A stretch of 45,627 bases of DNA, taken from positions 1-45,627 of the forward strand of contig CACZXG010000015.1 of NCBI GenBank assembly GCA_902785055.1. The letters are read 5' to 3'. This document shows, in pieces, positions 1 through 39,794 of the stretch. Source of the stretch: an uncultured Lachnospiraceae bacterium. Its GTDB lineage: Bacteria; Bacillota; Clostridia; Lachnospirales; Lachnospiraceae. The notes beneath the pieces are model-generated. The model was not told where the DNA came from. It worked only from the letters and a program-made list of their open reading frames with translations, and did no database searches. Numbering within the stretch: position 1 is the stretch's first letter; each line of letters begins with the position of its first letter. The translations under genes were made by a program, and so were the position numbers.

Positions 1-614
1 GGGAGATGCTGCGCATCATCAATTATGTGATCGATACCTATGAGGGGATTGAAGAGATGATCGGAGAGATCGACCGCAAGCATGTGGAGTATACAAGAGC
101 TTCCGTTGAACATATCCGATATCTGATGAATGCGGACCGAGGGACTAAGGGAAAGCTGATCGAGCTCTTAAAGCATTCCGGGGATCAGGAAGTGATGGAG
201 ATGATGGCGGATTCGGTCGGCATCTACCGGCACAGGTTTTATGATGACAAGTCCCTTTATGCGGAAGTGAAGCGAACCCGGAGGGAGATGGGAGAGCCGC
301 TGCCTCTTGCGGAGCCTGTCGAGGATGCGGCGGCGGTCCGCGCCTTTTTGGAGGGGATTCGGAGCCAGTATACGAATGCCAGGATCGACAGCTATGTGCG
401 GGACTGTTTTGGCGGAAGGGACACCTATTCTACGGAGGAAGTGCCGGCAGATACGGCGGAGGACTTTGTGCTGTTCCTCATGAGCACAATACGGGGACAG
501 GAAAGGAGTGCGTTCTTTACGGCAGAATTTCTCGAGGGGGATTTGCAAAAGAACGGCAGCAGTCTGCCCAGAGTATTATTCAGAAAGAAACGGAGACGAG
601 ATGCTGAAAGATAA
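1..614 (+). CDS. jetA: Wadjet subunit JetA, C-terminal part (5' end outside window)
   Basis: The frame is open to the left edge, so this is the last ~203 residues of a longer protein and the first ATG at base 6 is probably internal. The visible part is helical and charged with no enzyme motif. It is called JetA from position: it directly precedes jetB, jetC and jetD and its stop overlaps the jetB start. In Wadjet, JetA is the kleisin-like subunit that bridges the SMC-like JetC heads with JetB in a complex that extrudes and cleaves circular plasmid DNA. A DUF5716-like JetA is my best guess at the family, but the subtype cannot be fixed without the N-terminus. Confidence 0.85.
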   Translation, partial: EMLRIINYVIDTYEGIEEMIGEIDRKHVEYTRASVEHIRYLMNADRGTKGKLIELLKHSGDQEVMEMMADSVGIYRHRFYDDKSLYAEVKRTRREMGEPLPLAEPVEDAAAVRAFLEGIRSQYTNARIDSYVRDCFGGRDTYSTEEVPADTAEDFVLFLMSTIRGQERSAFFTAEFLEGDLQKNGSSLPRVLFRKKRRRDAER

Positions 615-1281
615 TTATGAAAAACTCAGCCTGGCAGAGAGGGAGACTTTCGCCAGGGTCACGAATCAGCTGCTGGCCCACAGTTTTCTTTTGTCCGACG
701 AGTTTGATTACAAGGAAGGGATCAGCAAGGTCAACCGGGATTATATATTTCTGGAACGGAACTATGAGCTGTTTACCGAGTATCTGGAACTGGCGGGATT
801 CGGACTTGTGAGGGACAGCGGCTACGGGGTGATCAGCCTGACCAGCGGTTACGATGGGAGTCGGGTGCATTTTGACAAGTTGACAACGATCATGCTCTAT
901 GCGCTGCGGCTGATCTATGAGGAAGAGAGGGAGAAGCTGACGCTGTCAAAGGAGGTCGCGCTGACTGTAGGAGAGCTGGTACATAAGCTGATCAATCTCG
1001 GGGCAATCGGCAAAAAGCCCGCGAATCTTGCCCTCGGAAGGTCGCTCAGAATGCTGAGCCAGTTCAGGATCCTTCGCAAATTGGAAGGGGCGTGGGACAG
1101 CGCAGATACGCGCATCGTGATCCTGCCTACGGTCCTGTTTGCGGTTTCCGGCGAGCAGATCGCGAACATGGCAAGGCTCGTGGAGGAGAAGGACGATGAT
1201 GCAGCGGCGTTTGCAGAGGAAGACGACGCTGTAGATCTTGCAGAAGAGGACGATGCGGCGGCGTTTGCAGAAGAGGAATGA
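601..1281 (+). CDS. jetB: Wadjet subunit JetB (DUF4194-like) with acidic repeat tail
   Basis: This 226-residue protein fits JetB, the small winged-helix (KITE-like) subunit that binds JetA in the Wadjet complex. The ATG at 601 overlaps the end of jetA by 14 bases and follows GGAG. A start at 508 is also open but would overlap jetA by over 100 bases, so I reject it. The body (residues about 1-190) is compact, with helical segments such as TVGELVHKLINLGAIGK. The last ~33 residues are an unusual acidic repeat of the form EEDDAAAFA, in about three imperfect copies, that I do not expect in the family. The identification rests mainly on gene order between jetA and an unmistakable jetC. Confidence 0.88.
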   Translation: MLKDNYEKLSLAERETFARVTNQLLAHSFLLSDEFDYKEGISKVNRDYIFLERNYELFTEYLELAGFGLVRDSGYGVISLTSGYDGSRVHFDKLTTIMLYALRLIYEEEREKLTLSKEVALTVGELVHKLINLGAIGKKPANLALGRSLRMLSQFRILRKLEGAWDSADTRIVILPTVLFAVSGEQIANMARLVEEKDDDAAAFAEEDDAVDLAEEDDAAAFAEEE

Positions 1282-1313
1282 TGCGGCGGTCTGCACGGAG
1301 GAGGAATGACGAT

Positions 1314-4300
1314 TTGAAAAAACTGACCAGACTGCTCCTCATACATTGGTATACCTATGACCGGGAGCTGATCGAATTTGAAAATATCAATTTTCTGACC
1401 GGGAAAACAGCGGCGGGAAAGTCTACGATCATTGACGCGCTCCAGCTGGTCCTCCTCGGAGACACGAATGGGAATTTCTTCAACAAGGCGGCGAACGAGC
1501 GGTCGGTGCGAACGCTCAAGAGTTATCTGTACGGAGAAAACGGCGACGACGGAGAGACGGGTTTCCGGTATCTGAGGGCCGCGACCTTTACCAGCTATGT
1601 GGTGGTGGAATTTGAGGACACGGAGAAGCAGACGCGGTTTTTGCTCGGGCTGGCGGCGGACTGCTATGAGGATCTCCACTTCGACTACAAGTGGTTCACA
1701 GTGGACAAGATGGGCATCCCCGAAAACTGCTTTACTAATCCCCGGACGAACACGCCCTACACGATCCCACAGCTCAAGCGCTATCTGCGGGACAGCAGAA
1801 AGCGCTTTGAGATCATCGATACGAACCGCCGCTATCAGGAAATCATCATGGGCAAATACGGGGCGGTCAAGCGCAAGTATCTGGTCCTGCTCAAGAAAGC
1901 AGTCCCCTTCACACCGATCACGGACATCGAAAAGTTTATTACGGAGTCGATCTGTGACGTCAGGAACAATATCCAGATCGAGCAGATGCAGAGCGACATC
2001 CGCCAGTACAAGAACCTGGAGGCCGATGCCGCGCGCACGCATGAGAAGGTGATCGCTCTGCGGGAGATCGAAACTCTGACAGAGGAGTACGAGGCGGATC
2101 GGGAGAGGTACCGCCTGCAGAGCTATATTATTCTGCGTGCACTTAGGGAGGAGGCCGAGCAGGAGGCCGCCCGCATACTCGACGGGATCCGGGAGCAGAG
2201 GGATATCCTCGAGGAGGCCGAGGCGCAGTATCAGAACGCGGAGAAGGAGATTTCCCGCCTGCGCAGAGAGATCGAGGAAATGGAGAGCGAGTATCACGGG
2301 TCGGACATCGCGCAGAAGCAGAAGCGGCTGGAGGAGGAGATCCGCTCTGTCAAAACACAGATCGGCGAGTTGGAAGACGGCCTGCGCCGCACGGCGGAGC
2401 GCATTGGAAGTTTCGGAGCGCACTGGCTCGCGAGTATGGACAGCATAGAACAGACGCAGTTCCCGGCAGACACGGAGAAAAGGGAGCTGGCGGGCAGGAT
2501 GGCTGCGCTTGGGGCACAAAGGACCGCGCTTGCGTCTGCGGCGGAAGAGCTGCCGGCGTTTGACATCAAAGGTGCGGCCAGGGAAATGGCTGCCTTAAGA
2601 GAGGAACTGGCAGGACATGCGTTCGAGCTCAAGCTTCGGGCGAGACAGATCGCGGGCAGGATCGAGGAACTGTCTGGAAGGATACAGAACCTGAAGAAGG
2701 GCATTAAGCCGTATCCGTCCCGGGTGACGGCCCTCAAGAGCCGGCTGGAAGCGGAACTTTTCAAAAGACACGGGAAAGCGGTGGAGATCCCGATCTTTGC
2801 GGAGCTTCTCGAGATCCGCGATCCCGCCTGGCAGGATGCAATAGAGGGATATCTGGACAAGCAGAAATTCTATCTTCTTGTGCCGGATCAGCACTTTACC
2901 GAGGCAAACAAGATTTATAACCGGATCAAAAAGGAAGAGAAGATCTTCGACGCGGGACTGGTGGATCTTGGCCGGCTCAGACGGGAATATCGCGGCAAAC
3001 CCGCTGTCAATTCCCTGGCCGAAGAAATTGAGACGGACAACAGAGACGCCCGCTTATATGCAGATTACCTTCTGGGCAATGTGATGAAATGTGAGGATCC
3101 CGGAGATTTTGCGGCATGCAGGACCGGGATCACCAAAGAAGTCATGCTTTATAAGAACTATGTCAGCCGACGGCTCAATCCGGCGCGATACGCCGACCCC
3201 TTTATCGGGAGACGGTCGCTGGAGATTCAGCTGCAGAATCTGACAAGGCAACTGGAGGAGGAAAAGCGTGAGCTGCAGAGCACTCAGAATGAGCATCGGC
3301 TGATCGACCGGGCTGCCAAAGAGAACGAAATGAGCGAATTCGAGGCGGAGCAGCTGGGCAAGGCTGTGGAGAAGGCCCACCGGATCCCTGCGCTTGCAGA
3401 GCGGCTTGACGAGGTACAGTCGGAGTATGAGGGGCTGGATCTGACCTGGCTCTTCAGGCTCGGCGAGAAAATTGACGAAAAGAAAGAGGAGCGGGAGGCC
3501 AGAGAGAAGGAGAGAAGCAGCGCGCTGGAGACCCGCGCAGGGGCCAAAGTCCGCTTGGAACAGCTGGAAAAAACGGATCTGGCGGCAGCGGAAGAGAAAA
3601 TCAGGCAGGTGAAGGGGGAGATCGCCGGACAGTTCGCACAGAACTGGATTGAGGAGACCGCCGAGCCCCGTTTTCTTAAAGAACTCCATGCGGACGGGCG
3701 CTCGCGCATGACGCTGCGGGAGAGCTTCACCCGTGCGAGGAATCAGACGGCTACCATCATGGAGGAACATTTACGGGAGCGCCGCAAAAAGCGCAGCGAT
3801 TACAATCAGGAATACAGGATGCCTTATGATACGGAACGTGAGGATAATGATGAATACTCCGGAGAACTCCGCGTTCTCAGTGACATCCGCCTTCCGGAAT
3901 ACCTCAGCCGGATCGTGGATGCCAAAGAAAAGGCCTATAACCAGTTCCGGGACGATTTTATTGCGAAGCTGAAGTCCAACATAGAGTCTGTCCGGGCTCA
4001 GATCGAGGAACTTAATTACTCGCTGAGGAACAGCGTTTTTGGAACGGACCGTTACCGGTTTACGATCGGCCCGAGGGCGGAATACCGCAATTACTACGAC
4101 ATGATCATGGATCCGCTCCTGATGGACACGGGCGGATGGAACATCGCCTCGCAGAGCTTCAATGAAAAGTATCAGAAGGAGATAGATTCTCTCTTTAAGA
4201 CGCTGATTTTCAATGAGACCAATGTCACGGCCGAGCGCCGCGCCGAATACGAAAAGATCGTGAAGAAATTCACCGATTACAAGACGTATCTGGTTTTTGA

Positions 4301-4685
4301 CCTGATCGTCACGAATGAACAGGGGGAAGAACAGCGCCTTTCCAAAACACTGCTCAAGAAGTCCGGCGGCGAGACGCAGATCCCCTTCTACATCGCTCTT
4401 TTGGCGTCCTTCTCCCAAGTGTGCAGGATCCGCAGCAAGGGTAAGAACAATACGATCCGCCTGATCATTCTCGATGAGGCGTTCAGCAAGATGGATGGCG
4501 AGCGGATTCGGGAGAGCATCGGCCTGCTCAAGCGATTTGGGCTGCAGGCAATCTTTTCGGCGCCGCCCGAGAAAATACCGGATATTGCGCCGATCGTGGA
4601 TCGGAATATCGCGGTTTATAAGTCGGGGCACCATTCGTTTACGCGGAGCTTTGACCCGGCGCAGATTGAAGAGGAGTTTCAATGA
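1314..4685 (+). CDS. jetC: Wadjet SMC-like ATPase JetC
   Basis: This SMC/MukB/SbcC-like ATPase of about 1123 residues drives DNA loop extrusion in Wadjet. Seen: Walker A GKTAAGKST at residues 30-38, long charged coiled-coil stretches, a globular hinge-like centre (about 455-620), an ABC signature KSGGETQ near 1020, and Walker B LIILDEAF with D1054/E1055. I prefer the TTG at 1314 because GGAGGAGG sits at 1298-1305 just upstream and the protein then begins MKKLTRLLL, the usual short lead to Walker A. An ATG at 1278 overlapping the jetB stop would add 12 arginine-rich residues and has a poorer site. The gene overlaps jetD by 4 bases (ATGA), so the two are translationally coupled. Confidence 0.95.
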   Translation: MKKLTRLLLIHWYTYDRELIEFENINFLTGKTAAGKSTIIDALQLVLLGDTNGNFFNKAANERSVRTLKSYLYGENGDDGETGFRYLRAATFTSYVVVEFEDTEKQTRFLLGLAADCYEDLHFDYKWFTVDKMGIPENCFTNPRTNTPYTIPQLKRYLRDSRKRFEIIDTNRRYQEIIMGKYGAVKRKYLVLLKKAVPFTPITDIEKFITESICDVRNNIQIEQMQSDIRQYKNLEADAARTHEKVIALREIETLTEEYEADRERYRLQSYIILRALREEAEQEAARILDGIREQRDILEEAEAQYQNAEKEISRLRREIEEMESEYHGSDIAQKQKRLEEEIRSVKTQIGELEDGLRRTAERIGSFGAHWLASMDSIEQTQFPADTEKRELAGRMAALGAQRTALASAAEELPAFDIKGAAREMAALREELAGHAFELKLRARQIAGRIEELSGRIQNLKKGIKPYPSRVTALKSRLEAELFKRHGKAVEIPIFAELLEIRDPAWQDAIEGYLDKQKFYLLVPDQHFTEANKIYNRIKKEEKIFDAGLVDLGRLRREYRGKPAVNSLAEEIETDNRDARLYADYLLGNVMKCEDPGDFAACRTGITKEVMLYKNYVSRRLNPARYADPFIGRRSLEIQLQNLTRQLEEEKRELQSTQNEHRLIDRAAKENEMSEFEAEQLGKAVEKAHRIPALAERLDEVQSEYEGLDLTWLFRLGEKIDEKKEEREAREKERSSALETRAGAKVRLEQLEKTDLAAAEEKIRQVKGEIAGQFAQNWIEETAEPRFLKELHADGRSRMTLRESFTRARNQTATIMEEHLRERRKKRSDYNQEYRMPYDTEREDNDEYSGELRVLSDIRLPEYLSRIVDAKEKAYNQFRDDFIAKLKSNIESVRAQIEELNYSLRNSVFGTDRYRFTIGPRAEYRNYYDMIMDPLLMDTGGWNIASQSFNEKYQKEIDSLFKTLIFNETNVTAERRAEYEKIVKKFTDYKTYLVFDLIVTNEQGEEQRLSKTLLKKSGGETQIPFYIALLASFSQVCRIRSKGKNNTIRLIILDEAFSKMDGERIRESIGLLKRFGLQAIFSAPPEKIPDIAPIVDRNIAVYKSGHHSFTRSFDPAQIEEEFQ

Positions 4686-6004
4686 GCCGATTCATGGAAA
4701 AGAAAATACTGACTGTCCTCCTGGACAGCTATGAGCGGAGCAGGCTTTTCAGAGAAGGCGGTTCTGCGCGGCGGATCCAGTTCCGCCCGATGGAGAGGGA
4801 AGACTTTGCGGAGCTGGCAGAGAAGTCCGATGCGAGAAGGGAATTCCTGGATACGGCAGAGGAATTGGCGGCGGAAGGCCTGATCGAATATGATTGGGTC
4901 CGCTATGAGGAAGGGAACCTGATCGACAGAATCTTTCTGCGTACGGAAGAGGCGGCCGTCAGGCAGAGTTATCTGCGAATCGGCCGCGTTCGAAAGCAGG
5001 CGCAGCTGGACGTGCTGGAGAGTCAGGTGCAGGCCGCTCTTTTCAGGATCGAGGCTGCGTTTCAGAAGATTGAGAGAAAGGGAGATGAGAAGATCACCGC
5101 GTGGCTTAGGGCTGCGCTGGAAGAGATTCGGTGCAAAAGGAGGATCCCGCGCCTGTTTTTCAAAGGAGAAAAGGATCCGGAATCGGAGAAGACGGCTGAG
5201 AAGAAGAATGAACGGCTGCTGCAGTTTCTCGAGCTTCTTGCGGGGAATGAAGACGAACTTCTGGAGCGGGTGGTCAGCACCCGACTGTATGGGGACAGCA
5301 AGTACTTTGAGCGCGAGCTTCGGAGCAAGGTCCTGTCCGTTCTGCGCAGGATCGAGGAGGATGGCTATGCGGAGGAACTGAACGGGGAGGAGCTTCTTGG
5401 CCGGTACGGAATCGTCCGTTGGCCGGAGATCCTGGAATTTACCGGGCCGGTCGTGGCTATGCTGGACGGCGGGGACGGGAGTCTTAGAAAGATTGATTAT
5501 CGGGATGAAGTTTACGGCGCCTATATCAATTCCGATACCGTGAGGCATCTTACAGGCGTGCGGCTGAATGGGGTGAGCAGGATTTTGACCATAGAGAACA
5601 AGGCCAATTATATCTCCTATATTAATGGGATGACGGCCGAGGACGAGCTGGTCATCTATCACGGGGGCTGCTACAGCCCGATCAAGGGCCGGTGGCTGCG
5701 CCTGATCGCGGAGGAAGCGGAGAAGAGCAAGATCCAGGTATTCCACTGGAGCGATATTGATCTGGGGGGATTCCGGATTTTTGTGCGGCTTAGAGACGAG
5801 ATATTCAGCAGCCTCAGGCCCTATAAAATGGATCTGGAGACCCTTGAAAAATACGGAGACAGGTGCATGCCGATCGATGATCAAAACTATTTGGACACTT
5901 TAGCCGGGTTGGAGGCAAAGCCGGAGTATGAGGTTTTTTATGAAGTGATCCGAAAGATGTGCAGCGAAAAGATAAGACTGGAGCAGGAGGCGGAGATTGT
6001 ATAG
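4682..6004 (+). CDS. jetD: Wadjet Toprim nuclease JetD (DUF3322/DUF2220)
   Basis: This 440-residue protein is the nuclease subunit that cleaves plasmid DNA held by JetABC. The N-terminal ~200 residues are helical and charged, as in the DUF3322-type arm. The C-terminal half is a Toprim fold of the topoisomerase VI A/DUF2220 type: the acidic residue E305 in TIENKANY and the DxD pair D358/D360 in HWSDIDLGG are the expected metal ligands, so it looks active. The length matches the family. It starts at the ATG overlapping the jetC stop by 4 bases, and is the last gene of the operon; no strong terminator is seen just after it. Confidence 0.94.
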   Translation: MSRFMEKKILTVLLDSYERSRLFREGGSARRIQFRPMEREDFAELAEKSDARREFLDTAEELAAEGLIEYDWVRYEEGNLIDRIFLRTEEAAVRQSYLRIGRVRKQAQLDVLESQVQAALFRIEAAFQKIERKGDEKITAWLRAALEEIRCKRRIPRLFFKGEKDPESEKTAEKKNERLLQFLELLAGNEDELLERVVSTRLYGDSKYFERELRSKVLSVLRRIEEDGYAEELNGEELLGRYGIVRWPEILEFTGPVVAMLDGGDGSLRKIDYRDEVYGAYINSDTVRHLTGVRLNGVSRILTIENKANYISYINGMTAEDELVIYHGGCYSPIKGRWLRLIAEEAEKSKIQVFHWSDIDLGGFRIFVRLRDEIFSSLRPYKMDLETLEKYGDRCMPIDDQNYLDTLAGLEAKPEYEVFYEVIRKMCSEKIRLEQEAEIV

Positions 6005-6090
6005 CGGGCCCACTTAACGGGTGACGCGTTTTTTGGCATCAGGAGCGTTCAGAACGCCGATTTAAAACGATTAAGCCAATAGCTGTTATT
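6005..6090 (+). other. Spacer after jetD; 5' flank of structured RNA
   Basis: There is no reading frame of note. Bases 6061-6076 contain TTTAAAACGATTAAG, nearly the same as the 3' end of the dispersed repeat at 9302-9461 (TTTTAAACGATTAAG). If the RNA that follows is of the IscB omega type, its guide would be the 15-20 bases just before 6091, as those RNAs carry the guide at the 5' end. This last point is inference only. Confidence 0.35.
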
Positions 6091-6300
6091 AATCTCCGAA
6101 TTGTTCCTAGATTCGGAGCCGGAGGTCATAACCAGCCGCCGCAGGGACCCCATGCGGGGTTCTCAGGCGGATGCTACAATACGTGTCCCGACGGCTCAGC
6201 GGCCTAAAGCCTGTTCCTGAGTTCCTCGCCGTCGGTCGGCGGCCGAGCAGCATCCGGCTGAGGTTCGCGCAAGGGCGGCGTACGGGTGAGAAAGACTATA
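6091..6300 (+). ncRNA. Structured RNA resembling HEARO / IscB omega RNA, without nuclease gene
   Basis: A dense series of stems is visible: CTCCGAAT/ATTCGGAG (6094-6101 with 6111-6118); a CCGCC/GGCGG stem enclosing GGACCCC/GGGGUUC (about 6132-6168); and CCGACGG/CCGUCGG enclosing CTCAG/CTGAG (about 6188-6236). The 3' part runs CCGGCTGAGG, CGCGCAAGGGCGG, then CGTACGGGTGAGA. From memory this closely resembles the 3' half of HEARO RNAs, now known as the omega RNAs of IscB nucleases. No IscB or IsrB frame lies nearby on either strand; the next gene is a lipoprotein at 6424. It is not tmRNA, 6S or RNase P as far as I can judge. A 74-residue frame across it is ignored. Confidence 0.55.
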
Positions 6301-6334
6301 GTATTAAATACAGGATTAACAGCAGGTTAGAAAC

Positions 6335-6362
6335 ATTCGGGCAAGAAATTCGCAAACCGAAT
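6335..6362 (+). promoter_or_regulatory. Stem-loop in leader of lipoprotein gene
   Basis: ATTCGG (6335-6340) and CCGAAT (6357-6362) form a 6-bp stem with a 16-base loop about 60 bases before the lipoprotein start. There is no U-tract, so it is not a terminator. It may be part of the 3' end of the structured RNA or a leader hairpin. Confidence 0.3.
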
Positions 6363-6423
6363 AAACAGCTTGCGAGAATGCATAGCAGCAAGTGAGGCAC
6401 ATATCAGAGAGGAGGATGAAAAA

Positions 6424-7902
6424 ATGAGAAAATTATTTGCGGTTCTGATCAGTGTCAGCATAGCGGTATCGCTCCTTTGCGGATGCGGCGGATCAAATGG
6501 GTCAGGCGGCTCCGCAGGGGAGCAGCAGGCGGCCGGTGAAGCTGCTCAGGGAGCGGAGCAGAAGGCAGGTGAAGCCGCCGACGCGGCTGATGCGCCCCCG
6601 ACGGTGAGCGATGCGGAAAACACTTATATTATCCTGGTCCAGGATGCCGACGACGCTTCGCCGCTCTCCGGCGCCATGGTTCAGTTCTGCTCGGATACGC
6701 AGTGCATGGTGGGGCGCACAGACGCGACCGGCTCGGCATCTTTTGAAGTCGATCCCGGGAACTATACGGCCCATGTGCTGAGAGTTCCTGAGGGGTATGA
6801 GGCGACCGAGGAAGAAATCGCGCTGTCGGCGGATAACCGGACGGCGGTATTTGCGATTCATAAGGCGGGCGCGGCCGAAAAGAGCAATGCGGAAGCAGAC
6901 GCAGCCCCTTCCAACGGCAAGCATGCGAAAGCCTGGGATCTCCCGCTCGCGGGCTTCTCCTTTACTGTTCCCGAAAGCTTCAGCAGCTGTAAGGGTCAGC
7001 TGTACTACGCCGATCGCGGTGAGACGGATTACGGCTCGGAGATTTTCTCAGCCGACATTATCTATCTGGCGAGGTCGGATGAAGAGAAGGCTGCCTATGA
7101 AGAAAAGATTGCCGGCGCCACGGAATTAACACCGGAGCTTCAGGCTGTGACTGACGAGTATTACGACAACCGCAATCCGGGCCTGGTCTCTTTTGTCTGT
7201 GCCGGGAAAGCGATTGATTCCCAAAAGATCATAGACACTGTTTTGTATGGCTTTCCGACCAAGGAGTTCACACAGGTCGGTGAGACTGACAAATATAATT
7301 TCTACTTCATCGTTCCCGACTATACAGGGTATGAGGACTTTCTGCGTGAGAATCTCGGCAATGAGCTGTATGAGGAGTTCGATGCGCAGCTGAAAAATGC
7401 GGGTTCGCTCAAGGCGCAGGTCTCCGTAAAGGAGCCTGTAAGGCCGGTCACCGCGGCGGGAACCGGGGAACAGTTTGTTTTTGAGACTACGGATCTGGAC
7501 GGGAACGCCGTGACGAGCGCAGCGCTTTTCGCCGGCCATAAGGTAACGATGATCAACATCTGGGCTACCTGGTGCGATCCCTGCAAGAATGAGCTCCCGG
7601 AGCTGGAGGAGTTTGCCAAGGAACTGGCCGGAAAAGACTGCCAGATCATCGGAATCTGCGAAGATACATCCTATGACGACACTGCCGCCTCCGAGGCAAA
7701 AGAGATCCTCGCGAAGGCAGGCGTCACCTACACAAACATTAAGGCGACGGATGAGATGCTTGAGATGATGACGTGTCTCGCTATGCCGACATCCTACTTT
7801 GTGGACAGTGAAGGCCATGTCCTTACTATGCCGGTAAGGGGCGCGGACTTCGAAAAATACAGAGAGAGGATCGAGGAGGCGTTAAAGATTGTCGGAGAGT
7901 GA
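6424..7902 (+). CDS. Lipoprotein with prealbumin-like domain and C-terminal TlpA-type thioredoxin domain
   Basis: This is a 492-residue surface lipoprotein. The N-terminus has a basic start, a hydrophobic core and the lipobox LCGC (Cys about residue 22), followed by an Ala/Glu/Gly-rich linker. Residues about 60-155 look like a small transthyretin/Cna_B-like beta domain (YIILVQDADD, then GRTDATGSASFEV and GNYTAHV). A middle region (about 175-340) is unrecognised. The C-terminal ~150 residues are a TlpA/ResA-like thioredoxin fold with WCDPC (C384/C387) and the cis-proline in AMPTSYFVD (P458), so thiol-disulfide exchange outside the membrane is likely. The ATG at 6424 follows AGAGGAGG; an upstream frame start at 6370 lacks a site. 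Confidence 0.85.
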   Translation: MRKLFAVLISVSIAVSLLCGCGGSNGSGGSAGEQQAAGEAAQGAEQKAGEAADAADAPPTVSDAENTYIILVQDADDASPLSGAMVQFCSDTQCMVGRTDATGSASFEVDPGNYTAHVLRVPEGYEATEEEIALSADNRTAVFAIHKAGAAEKSNAEADAAPSNGKHAKAWDLPLAGFSFTVPESFSSCKGQLYYADRGETDYGSEIFSADIIYLARSDEEKAAYEEKIAGATELTPELQAVTDEYYDNRNPGLVSFVCAGKAIDSQKIIDTVLYGFPTKEFTQVGETDKYNFYFIVPDYTGYEDFLRENLGNELYEEFDAQLKNAGSLKAQVSVKEPVRPVTAAGTGEQFVFETTDLDGNAVTSAALFAGHKVTMINIWATWCDPCKNELPELEEFAKELAGKDCQIIGICEDTSYDDTAASEAKEILAKAGVTYTNIKATDEMLEMMTCLAMPTSYFVDSEGHVLTMPVRGADFEKYRERIEEALKIVGE

Positions 7903-39468: not shown

Positions 39469-39638
39469 AAAGAGTACTTTCGAAGAAATCAGGCGGCTGC
39501 GGACTGTGGTATATTTTGACCAAATCCCGGGCAAAAAAGGGGAATTCGATTTTTCCTATTTCTAAATCGGCAAAAATTGTATATAGTGTTATCTGAGAAG
39601 GCGTCTCCACCCCGCGCGGAGGAGGGGAGAGGCAGCCA
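39469..39638 (+). other. 5' region upstream of glmS ribozyme
   Basis: This is non-coding. It contains CGATTT/AAATCG flanking an AT-rich loop (about 39548-39576) and TTGTATATAGTG (about 39578-39589), which could hold a -10, but I see no convincing -35. The purine-rich GGAGGAGGGGAGAGG just before the ribozyme is probably leader sequence. Transcription of the glmM operon must start here or upstream. Confidence 0.4.
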
Positions 39639-39794
39639 GCGCCGGGACCGGAAGGTTGACGAGGACAGCAGTTATCGAAATATTCGGCGGATGCTGCTGC
39701 GGCGGGCGCGCCGTCAGAGACAGAGGTAAAAAGCAGAATCAACACTGTAACAGATGCTGTCTCAACGCAGAGCAGGCCGGAAACTTGCGGCCGA
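39639..39794 (+). ncRNA. glmS ribozyme (GlcN6P-activated self-cleaving riboswitch)
   Basis: The conserved glmS ribozyme core is plain: AGCGCC at the cleavage site (cut expected between A39638 and G39639), GGTTGACGAGG, then TTATCGAA-ATA-TTCGGCGG within the CAGCAG/CTGCTG P3 stem. Next come GCCGTCAGAGACAGAGG-TAAAAAGC, AGATGCTGTCTC, and a terminal GGCCG/CGGCC hairpin. Glucosamine-6-phosphate is the cofactor for cleavage, which marks the downstream mRNA for decay. It normally precedes glmS; here it precedes glmM, with nagB and glmS further down the same apparent operon. Confidence 0.95.

What the first reader, a model, noticed from the sequence alone, without database searches (positions are those of the whole stretch)
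6091..6300. Orphan HEARO/IscB-omega-like RNA with no nuclease gene
The non-coding stretch after jetD folds into several strong stems, and its 3' half (CCGGCTGAGG, CGCGCAAGGGCGG, CGTACGGGTGAGA) closely recalls the conserved end of HEARO RNAs, the guides of IscB. No IscB is present in the window. It could be a decayed IS element, a stand-alone RNA used in trans by an IscB elsewhere, or a domesticated guide RNA at a defence locus.
Basis: partly seen in the sequence, partly recalled or inferred. Interest (0 to 1): 0.75.

Follow-up and report, generated by a model that had tools for sequence, protein, structure and literature searches.

The report
Orphan copy of transposon-tail RNA
The stretch after the defence gene jetD is a worn, lone copy of a structured RNA that several unrelated kinds of jumping gene carry in Clostridia; it is not the suspected IscB guide RNA, and intact relatives hold a 12-letter loop that copies the 12 letters just in front of the RNA.

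Summary
The folded stretch is real but not HEARO: on 5950-6450 Rfam gives only a chance snoRNA hit outside the RNA at E up to 10, and RF02033 finds nothing in the genome. It belongs to an RNA family without an Rfam 15 match. In 41 aligned copies 91.8% of paired cells are standard pairs and 29 of 41 pairs change on both sides (slid controls 12-17). Its covariance model hits 32 of 397 genomes of the family and 22 of 391 of the class, own genome included. It rides on unrelated insertion sequences (IS6-like, IS3, ISL3, IS110); 37 of 117 distinct copies start within -15..+8 nt of a transposase-like stop codon. The 12 nt before the RNA recur in its apical loop and covary: 39 of 68 pairs match at 11 or 12 positions (shuffled mean 5.4, maximum 13). 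I infer a guide that recognises the element's own 5' edge. The window copy (6103-6280) keeps the structure, but its guide match is 7 of 12 and no transposase adjoins: probably a relic, absent after jetD in two related genomes.

The parts
6007..6309 (+). unit shared with relatives (mobile or hitch-hiking unit)
   Evidence: Window and L145 are 97.8% identical over 1-6006 and 99.0% over 6211-6309, with no further match in the first 9 kb; window and L143 share 6003-6050 (81%) and 6046-6309 (84%). The left edge is approximate.
6097..6108 (+). 12-nt leader ('address', R1) CGAATTGTTCCT
   Evidence: Place of the 12-nt direct repeat defined over 68 copies; here it matches the loop copy at 7 of 12 positions.
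6103..6280 (+). structured RNA, full length of model R1
   Evidence: 126 bits, E 4.5e-27, model 1-180; the window copy is one of the 41 rows of the model.
6109..6125 (+). conserved 5' block AGATTCGGAGCCGGAGG
   Evidence: Alignments A1 and A3.
6135..6138 (+). helix P1, 5' strand (GCCG; GCCA in most relatives)
   Evidence: Pairs with 6276-6279; A-U to G-C change on both sides in 4 of 41 sequences at one pair.
6149..6175 (+). helix P3, 5' strand
   Evidence: Pairs with 6249-6275; 22 of 26 pairs of this helix have changes on both sides.
6190..6194 (+). helix P4, 5' strand GACGG
   Evidence: Pairs with 6229-6233 CCGTC; 91.5% of cells of the P4 helix paired, but only 1 of its 7 pairs changes on both sides.
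6207..6218 (+). 12-nt apical-loop copy ('guide', R2) AAGCCTGTTCCT
6219..6228 (+). conserved loop block GAGTTCCTCG
   Evidence: Highly conserved in alignment A3; many copies were found through this block, so its conservation is partly by selection of the search.
6229..6233 (+). helix P4, 3' strand CCGTC
6276..6279 (+). helix P1, 3' strand CGGC
4682..6004 (+). jetD, the gene upstream (Wadjet type I)
   Evidence: PADLOC JetD1 E 8.5e-100; jetA (partial), jetB and jetC precede it. Context, not part of the RNA.

Best explanation
The feature is a lone, probably decaying copy of an RNA family carried by insertion sequences of Clostridia (and, more divergent, of a Geobacillus plasmid). Shown by sequence: the RNA folds into P1, P2, a long P3 and P4; it exists as repeated copies; it sits on unrelated transposons, in many cases starting at a transposase stop codon; and 12 nt just before the structure recur in the P4 loop, the two copies changing together between lineages. 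Inferred: the loop is a guide. It is identical to its own leader and no partner for the leader stands out inside the RNA, so the strand it can pair with is the complementary DNA strand of the leader, in the same element or in sister copies. The RNA would then recognise its own element by a private 12-nt address, with a host or element protein acting there (copy-number control, retention or mobilisation; not resolved). In the window the leader no longer matches the loop and the model finds no second copy in the assembly, so this copy is most likely inactive. Confidence about 0.9 for identity (not HEARO; IS-borne RNA family), about 0.35 for guide-type self-recognition, about 0.7 for the window copy being a relic.
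For: Structure: (91.8% of cells paired; 206 cells with double changes against a shuffled mean of 56 and slid values of 33-58); G-U cells exceed A-C cells 95 to 25, which favours the + strand as RNA. Family spread. IS association; IS ends and exact 8-bp target duplications (13 of 21 IS6-like copies). Guide and address: 24 non-redundant copies without an IS6-like transposase, some of them on ISL3 or IS3: 104 matches at -8..-2, shuffled mean 56, maximum 80, 0 of 10000; 68 copies: positions -12..-1 match in 42-68 copies, positions -16..-13 in 18-21 against permuted means of 15-18; 39 of 68 pairs match at 11 or 12 positions. Window copy degenerate: 7 of 12, 0 of 5 variable positions. Not a fixed part of the Wadjet system: two genomes with jetD at 97-99% identity lack it.
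Against: No transcription data; no promoter-like site by the consensus scan of 5800-6500. The RNA is dispensable: IS6-like elements without a model hit occur in several copies per genome (L383/L403, L387/L405). In ISL3 elements such as L082 and L128 the RNA points away from the transposase gene, so an mRNA-tail role does not fit all. In one search the positions of TGTTCyT are nearly constant (permuted means 34.6-60.4 of 68) and position -1 shows no excess, so the covarying part is mostly five to six letters; in the 17 IS6-like copies the excess is small (79 against a mean of 68, maximum 78). One search also lists weaker complementary signals touching the leader's left part (windows -18/-10, z 5.1; -8 with loop +22, z 3.6; z uncalibrated, many tests). 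No protein partner was found. Two identical motifs could equally be two sites for one protein.
Confidence: 0.55

Rival explanations
1. The two 12-nt copies are two binding sites of one RNA-binding protein (a transposase or host factor). The RNA is a regulatory element, often in the 3' tail of transposase mRNA, and the lineage-specific letters follow the protein.
For: The repeat continues as a degenerate similarity (AGATTCnGAGCC against GAGTTCyTCGCC; alignment); the RNA often begins at a transposase stop codon; it is an accessory module.
Against: The same RNA occurs with four unrelated transposase families, so a common transposase domain is unlikely to bind it; the match ends sharply at 12 nt; copies with no recognised transposase nearby, such as L109 and L129, also keep it (their neighbours were not exhaustively typed).
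Confidence: 0.3
2. It works as DNA: a palindromic recombination or transposition site (attC-like, MITE-like), the 12-nt repeats being crossover or duplication sequences.
For: Long inverted repeat; at least 10 copies have lost exactly the segment between the two repeats (L014, L048, L061, L088, L091, L097, first copy of L111, L116, L142, L145; read by eye, among 147 core occurrences that include duplicates, cut copies and chance matches); a partial copy in this genome lies beside a tyrosine recombinase.
Against: The segment between the repeats pairs with the sequence after the second repeat, with compensatory changes across lineages, so the two sides evolve as one unit; G-U is tolerated 95 times against 25 for A-C; deletion between 12-nt repeats is expected from replication slippage alone.
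Confidence: 0.15
3. It is a HEARO (IscB omega) RNA that lost its nuclease.
Against: No hit to RF02033 at E up to 10 for the region or the genome; no Rfam hit for 16 relative loci at gathering scores, and only chance miRNA-type hits for a double-copy relative at E up to 10.
Confidence: 0.02
4. The window copy is functional where it is: a domesticated RNA acting as the 3' end of the Wadjet operon.
For: It starts 98 nt after the jetD stop, same strand; a second genome (L145) also has RNA sequence after the same jetD.
Against: In L145 the 5' half of the RNA is missing; two other genomes with nearly identical jetD have none; the guide match is lost.
Confidence: 0.1

Closest known systems
HEARO RNA, RF02033 (omega RNA of IscB; properties recalled)
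   Same: Structured RNA of about 200 nt on mobile elements, often found without a protein gene, with a segment that matches flanking DNA.
   Different: No covariance-model hit; carried by DDE/DEDD insertion sequences; the guide-like segment is in an internal apical loop.
Bridge RNA / seekRNA of IS110 and IS1111 (recalled, no call)
   Same: IS-encoded RNA with loops presenting short guides; one copy (L169) lies after an IS110 transposase.
   Different: That IS110 copy also has at least 229 nt upstream of the transposase frame with no frame of 80 aa or more, the usual place of the bridge RNA (recalled); the other typed carriers are DDE elements.
reRNA of TnpB (IS200/IS605, IS607; recalled, no call)
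   Same: RNA at the 3' end of a transposon gene, overlapping or abutting the stop codon.
   Different: TnpB is not the carrier gene in the typed copies (one copy, L166, lies upstream of frames that look IS607-like, untyped); the guide-like segment is not at the 3' end.
MRSC 'mobile/repeat sequence candidates' of Narunsky et al. 2024 (PMC11109978; abstract, outline and passages seen)
   Same: Multi-copy structured motifs near transposase genes, thought to be selfish.
   Different: The one described in the passages (MRSC-65-2) is a single long stem; the full list of 250 candidates was not seen, so overlap with this family cannot be excluded.
IS6 family clade VIII (clade i): ISHahy6, ISHco2, ISTet2 (PMC6807381, PMC7986276; passages seen)
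   Same: Long IS6-like transposase with zinc finger and extra N-terminal domain, about 450 aa, 8-bp target duplications; the commonest carrier here.
   Different: Placement is by size and features, not by a tree made here; a term search found no 'noncoding' or 'non-coding' in either paper.

Membership tests
HEARO (RF02033) | Match to the family covariance model | tested here: not met
   No hit at E up to 10 on 5950-6450; none in the genome.
HEARO (RF02033) | Association with an IscB/IsrB nuclease gene in at least some members | not tested
   None noticed among neighbouring frames listed or typed, but no IscB profile was run.
Bridge RNA / seekRNA | Encoded by an IS110/IS1111-family element | tested here: not met
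   1 of 37 transposase-abutting copies is IS110 (L169).
Bridge RNA / seekRNA | Two loops with distinct target and donor guides | tested here: inconclusive
   Leader and loop carry the same 12-mer; no second guide-type signal of like strength was recognised, which saw only 40 nt around three anchors.
TnpB reRNA | RNA overlaps the 3' end of tnpB, with the guide at the RNA 3' end | tested here: not met
   Typed carriers are DDE/DEDD transposases; the guide-like segment is internal.
Integron attC-type site | Works as folded DNA recombined by a tyrosine recombinase; partners recombine freely | tested here: not met
   Compensatory pairing across the putative crossover; the only adjacent recombinase typed lies beside a partial copy.
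RNA family defined here (model R1) | Full-length model match with P1, P3, P4 and both conserved blocks | tested here: met
   126 bits, positions 1-180; the window copy is in the seed alignment, so the score is partly by construction.
RNA family defined here (model R1) | 12-nt leader repeated in the P4 loop | tested here: not met
   7 of 12 in the window copy, only in the near-constant half: a degenerate member.
RNA family defined here (model R1) | Transcribed and processed as a separate RNA | not testable with these tools
   No expression data.

The most novel reading that the evidence does not exclude
A third kind of transposon-borne guide RNA, besides omega/reRNA and bridge RNA: an accessory RNA that spreads between unrelated DDE and DEDD insertion sequences and uses a 12-nt apical-loop guide to recognise a private 12-nt address at its own 5' edge, letting an element (or a protein acting in trans) find its own copies in the genome.
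Probability: 0.3. Interest if true: 0.9.

Novelty: new variant of a known kind. Interest (0 to 1): 0.68.

Why it matters
The family is found in about 6 to 8% of the sampled genomes of its class and family, has strong covariation support and has no match in Rfam 15. It shows that DDE insertion sequences, usually described as needing only a transposase and ends, can carry a structured RNA. If the 12-nt copy is a guide, RNA-guided recognition in simple transposons reaches beyond IscB, TnpB and IS110. It also gives a direct test: swap one 12-mer or both and follow transposition, copy number or RNA-DNA contacts.

Tried and rejected
HEARO: rejected. Skipping-rope RNA: a recalled idea; I recall it as an Rfam family (the Rfam 14 paper mentions it in a listing; one passage elsewhere), and no such match appeared in cmscan. 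Pairing between the 5' and 3' flanks of the RNA (an outer stem): not supported, permutation P 0.83 and 0.85. Target-site duplication or cassette exchange as the cause of the 12-nt repeat: rejected because sequences on either side of the second repeat covary. Bridge-RNA identity: rejected for the family. RNA as the determinant of the insertion site of IS6-like elements: rejected, because copies without it show the same preference. Stop-codon bypass: considered and dropped, because where the leader carries the stop codon the loop copy repeats it.

Most subscription papers and all bioRxiv preprints are not held, so absence from print is not shown.

In 'standalone' meant only 'no hit to the IS6-like transposase'; some of those copies sit on ISL3 or IS3. 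In one search, 5 of 68 rows are mis-anchored (L208, L226, L227, L232, L244) and were kept. In one search, 9 of the 37 matched frames are themselves reference sequences. In one search the 'type A' group also holds copies with no model hit (L395) or traces; L408 and L409 were called RNA-less by look, not by the model; L388's right side is cut; flanks count only where a left end was recognised, and for L385 and L392 I took the candidate end at the usual distance. Model match counts per genome include opposite-strand hits of the palindrome.

Full report
What is there. The window is the whole of contig 15 of a 3.13 Mb, 196-contig assembly estimated 87% complete. Its first six kilobases encode a Wadjet type I system: jetA (cut by the contig start), jetB, jetC and jetD. 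jetD ends at 6004. Rfam gives nothing there at gathering scores and, at E up to 10, only a chance snoRNA hit at 6409-6425, outside the RNA. HEARO (RF02033) gives no match in the whole genome at E up to 10. Folded alone the sequence is only mildly more stable than shuffles (z -1.4 for 6091-6300; z -2.5 for 406 nt; other strand z -2.3).

It is a repeated family. A DNA search of 250 genomes of the same family found matches in 16, the window's own included. The pieces line up as one architecture: a 5' block AGATTCnGAGCCnGAGG, GCCACC, a variable hairpin, and a long stem whose tip carries a small stem GACGG/CCGTC with TGTTCyTGAGTTCyTCG in its loop. From 95 full-length copies I kept 41 non-redundant ones. 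On their alignment the structure P1-P4 has 91.8% of cells paired, 29 of 41 pairs with changes on both sides, 206 doubly changed cells and a covariation score of 0.386. Shuffles give 78.2%, 17.4, 56 and 0.143; structures slid by one to three columns give at most 50.1%, 17, 58 and 0.084. P3 carries most of this (22 of 26 pairs); P4 varies little (1 of 7). G-U cells outnumber A-C cells 95 to 25, so the + strand is the likely RNA. None of 16 relative loci matches an Rfam family at gathering scores.

How common. A covariance model built from the 41 copies hits the window copy at 126 bits and no other place in its genome at E up to 1; the window copy is one of the seeds. At E up to 0.001 the model finds 10 of 61 genomes of the genus and 7 of 398 of the phylum; at E up to 0.0001, 32 of 397 of the family and 22 of 391 of the class. 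Each count includes the window's genome. Some genomes hold several copies (four in G378; six in G1056). A weak relative follows an IS6-like transposase on a Geobacillus plasmid (20.8 bits, E 6e-4 with filters off; sequence).

Where it sits. Among 117 distinct model hits I looked for an open frame ending near the RNA start; 91 have one. In 40 a frame ends between 15 nt before and 8 nt after that start, and 37 of these resemble the reference transposases, nine being references themselves: 31 an IS6-like transposase of about 460 residues (Pfam DDE_Tnp_IS240 for the type sequence), 5 IS3 (L149, L168, L213, L238, L239) and 1 IS110 (L169). Pfam confirms IS3 for L149, L239 and L168, IS110 for L169, and ISL3 for two transposases near other copies (L151, L082). 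The IS6-like elements have terminal repeats of the type GGTAGTGTCAA and exact 8-bp target duplications in 13 of 21 copies examined. In ISL3 elements such as L082 and L128 the RNA points away from the transposase gene. Many copies, the window's included, have no transposase recognised next to them. The RNA is an accessory: of 27 IS6-like loci scanned, seven carry full-length hits above 100 bits, two diverged hits (L396, L398), two only traces (L386, L404) and sixteen none. Elements without a hit include ones in several copies per genome, and some carry a different hairpin at the same place.

The 12-nt repeat. The letters just before the 5' block recur in the apical loop just before GAGTTC. In 24 non-redundant copies without an IS6-like transposase (some on ISL3 or IS3) positions -8 to -2 match 104 times against a shuffled mean of 56 and maximum of 80 in 10000 shuffles; in the 17 IS6-like copies the excess is small, 79 against 68, maximum 78. 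With 68 copies the picture sharpens: the twelve positions before AGATTC/GAGTTC match in 42 to 68 copies, the four positions before them in 18 to 21, where permuted means are 15 to 18. 39 of 68 pairs match at 11 or 12 positions (shuffled mean 5.4, maximum 13), with 49 distinct leader 12-mers. Five of the 68 rows are mis-anchored by an indel and were kept. Within the 12 nt the TGTTCyT part is nearly constant (permuted means 34.6 to 60.4 of 68, and no excess at the last position), so the covarying part is mostly five to six letters. No segment complementary to the whole leader stands out near three anchors of the RNA; the strongest complementary signals touching its left part are weaker (z 5.1 and 3.6, uncalibrated). 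The 5' and 3' flanks do not pair in general. At least ten copies have lost exactly the segment between the two repeats (by eye), as replication slippage would give. That such repeats persist suggests selection for the match (inference).

Reading of the mechanism. An RNA loop identical to its own leader can pair with one thing near at hand: the other DNA strand of that leader, in its own or a sister element. I therefore favour RNA-guided self-recognition through a 12-nt private address, with an unknown protein acting there (about 0.35). The main rival is that the two motifs are two binding sites for one protein (about 0.3); the carriers are four unrelated transposase families, which speaks against a transposase as that protein. 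A purely DNA-level role is disfavoured because the two sides of the second repeat pair with compensatory changes.

The window copy. Its structure is complete, but leader (CGAATTGTTCCT, 6097-6108) and loop (AAGCCTGTTCCT, 6207-6218) agree at 7 of 12 positions, none of them in the five variable ones. Another genome with a 97.8% identical Wadjet operon (L145, G668) has, after the same jetD, unrelated sequence and then only the RNA's 3' half (99% identical to 6211-6309), with different DNA beyond. Two further genomes of the genus with jetD at 97-99% identity have no model hit there and other sequence after the stop. The RNA is thus a visitor at this defence locus, not a component of it. The own genome holds one further trace, 34 nt at 88% identity at the end of contig 139, followed by a tyrosine recombinase gene. 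I conclude that this is most likely an orphan relic.

Known or new. Papers seen: PMC11109978 and PMC8632094 (abstract, outline, passages), PMC8040213, PMC7986276 and PMC6807381 (passages), PMC8501573 (one passage). None of these passages describes the family. The ten searches cover only open-licence papers, so prior description elsewhere is possible. Facts on omega RNA, reRNA and bridge RNA are recalled.

Noticed in passing
IS6-like copies among L032-L148 and L380-L409, and L252, L253: The long IS6-like elements insert at a fixed place: 43 of 45 copies with a recognised left end have CAT, which reads as the start codon of a gene facing away from the element, at 22-25 nt from that end (31 at exactly 23), usually with a Shine-Dalgarno-like stretch between. 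Copies without the RNA (10 of 11) and with the other hairpin (4 of 4) do the same, so it looks like a property of the transposase. Random 45-mers from the same loci show the SD-plus-CAT pattern in 233 of 2875 against 17 of 21 copies. One literature search listed no report of it.
   Followed up: partly
L389, L390, L392, L393 (L380 and L391 similar): A second conserved hairpin (TATGCCGCGAAAGCCTCTTGATAATGAG ... CTCATTGTCAAGAGGACCGTGGAATAAATGCG) occupies the same place after the transposase stop in other IS6-like elements; its stem base resembles that of the RNA family (by eye).
   Followed up: no
L138 3517-3695 and 3971-4149 (minus strand): Two copies of the RNA about 454 nt apart in what looks like a diverged tandem duplication: RNA plus about 30 nt before and 20 nt after are nearly identical while the rest has drifted, a possible sign of selection on the RNA unit.
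   Followed up: partly
L153 2408-2545 and 6643-6744: A copy of the RNA split by an insertion of about 4.1 kb that holds a frame with weak similarity to a tyrosine recombinase (26.8% identity).
   Followed up: no
G000 contig 139, L010: A partial RNA 3' end at the contig edge is followed by a tyrosine recombinase (Pfam) and a short second frame, then what looks like another transposase gene pair (not typed).
   Followed up: partly
L179, L181, L185, L186, L188-L190, L193 (genus relatives): A diverged subclass with leader and loop of the type GATATCCCT, several copies in some genomes, four of them (L179, L181, L185, L186) beside a similar gene in different species (by eye).
   Followed up: no
minus strand of the RNA in 11 loci, such as L118, L020, L134, L138: Small open frames (mostly 77-118 aa) run antisense through the RNA and cluster by blastp. 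I take them as a by-product of the conserved RNA, but did not test coding.
   Followed up: no
apex of P3 in the family (AATGCTACAATGCTG): A second covarying direct repeat, z about 12 (uncalibrated), which would let the 3' strand of P3 pair in two registers.
   Followed up: no
window 39627-39772: glmS ribozyme, 60.8 bits, ordinary.
   Followed up: no
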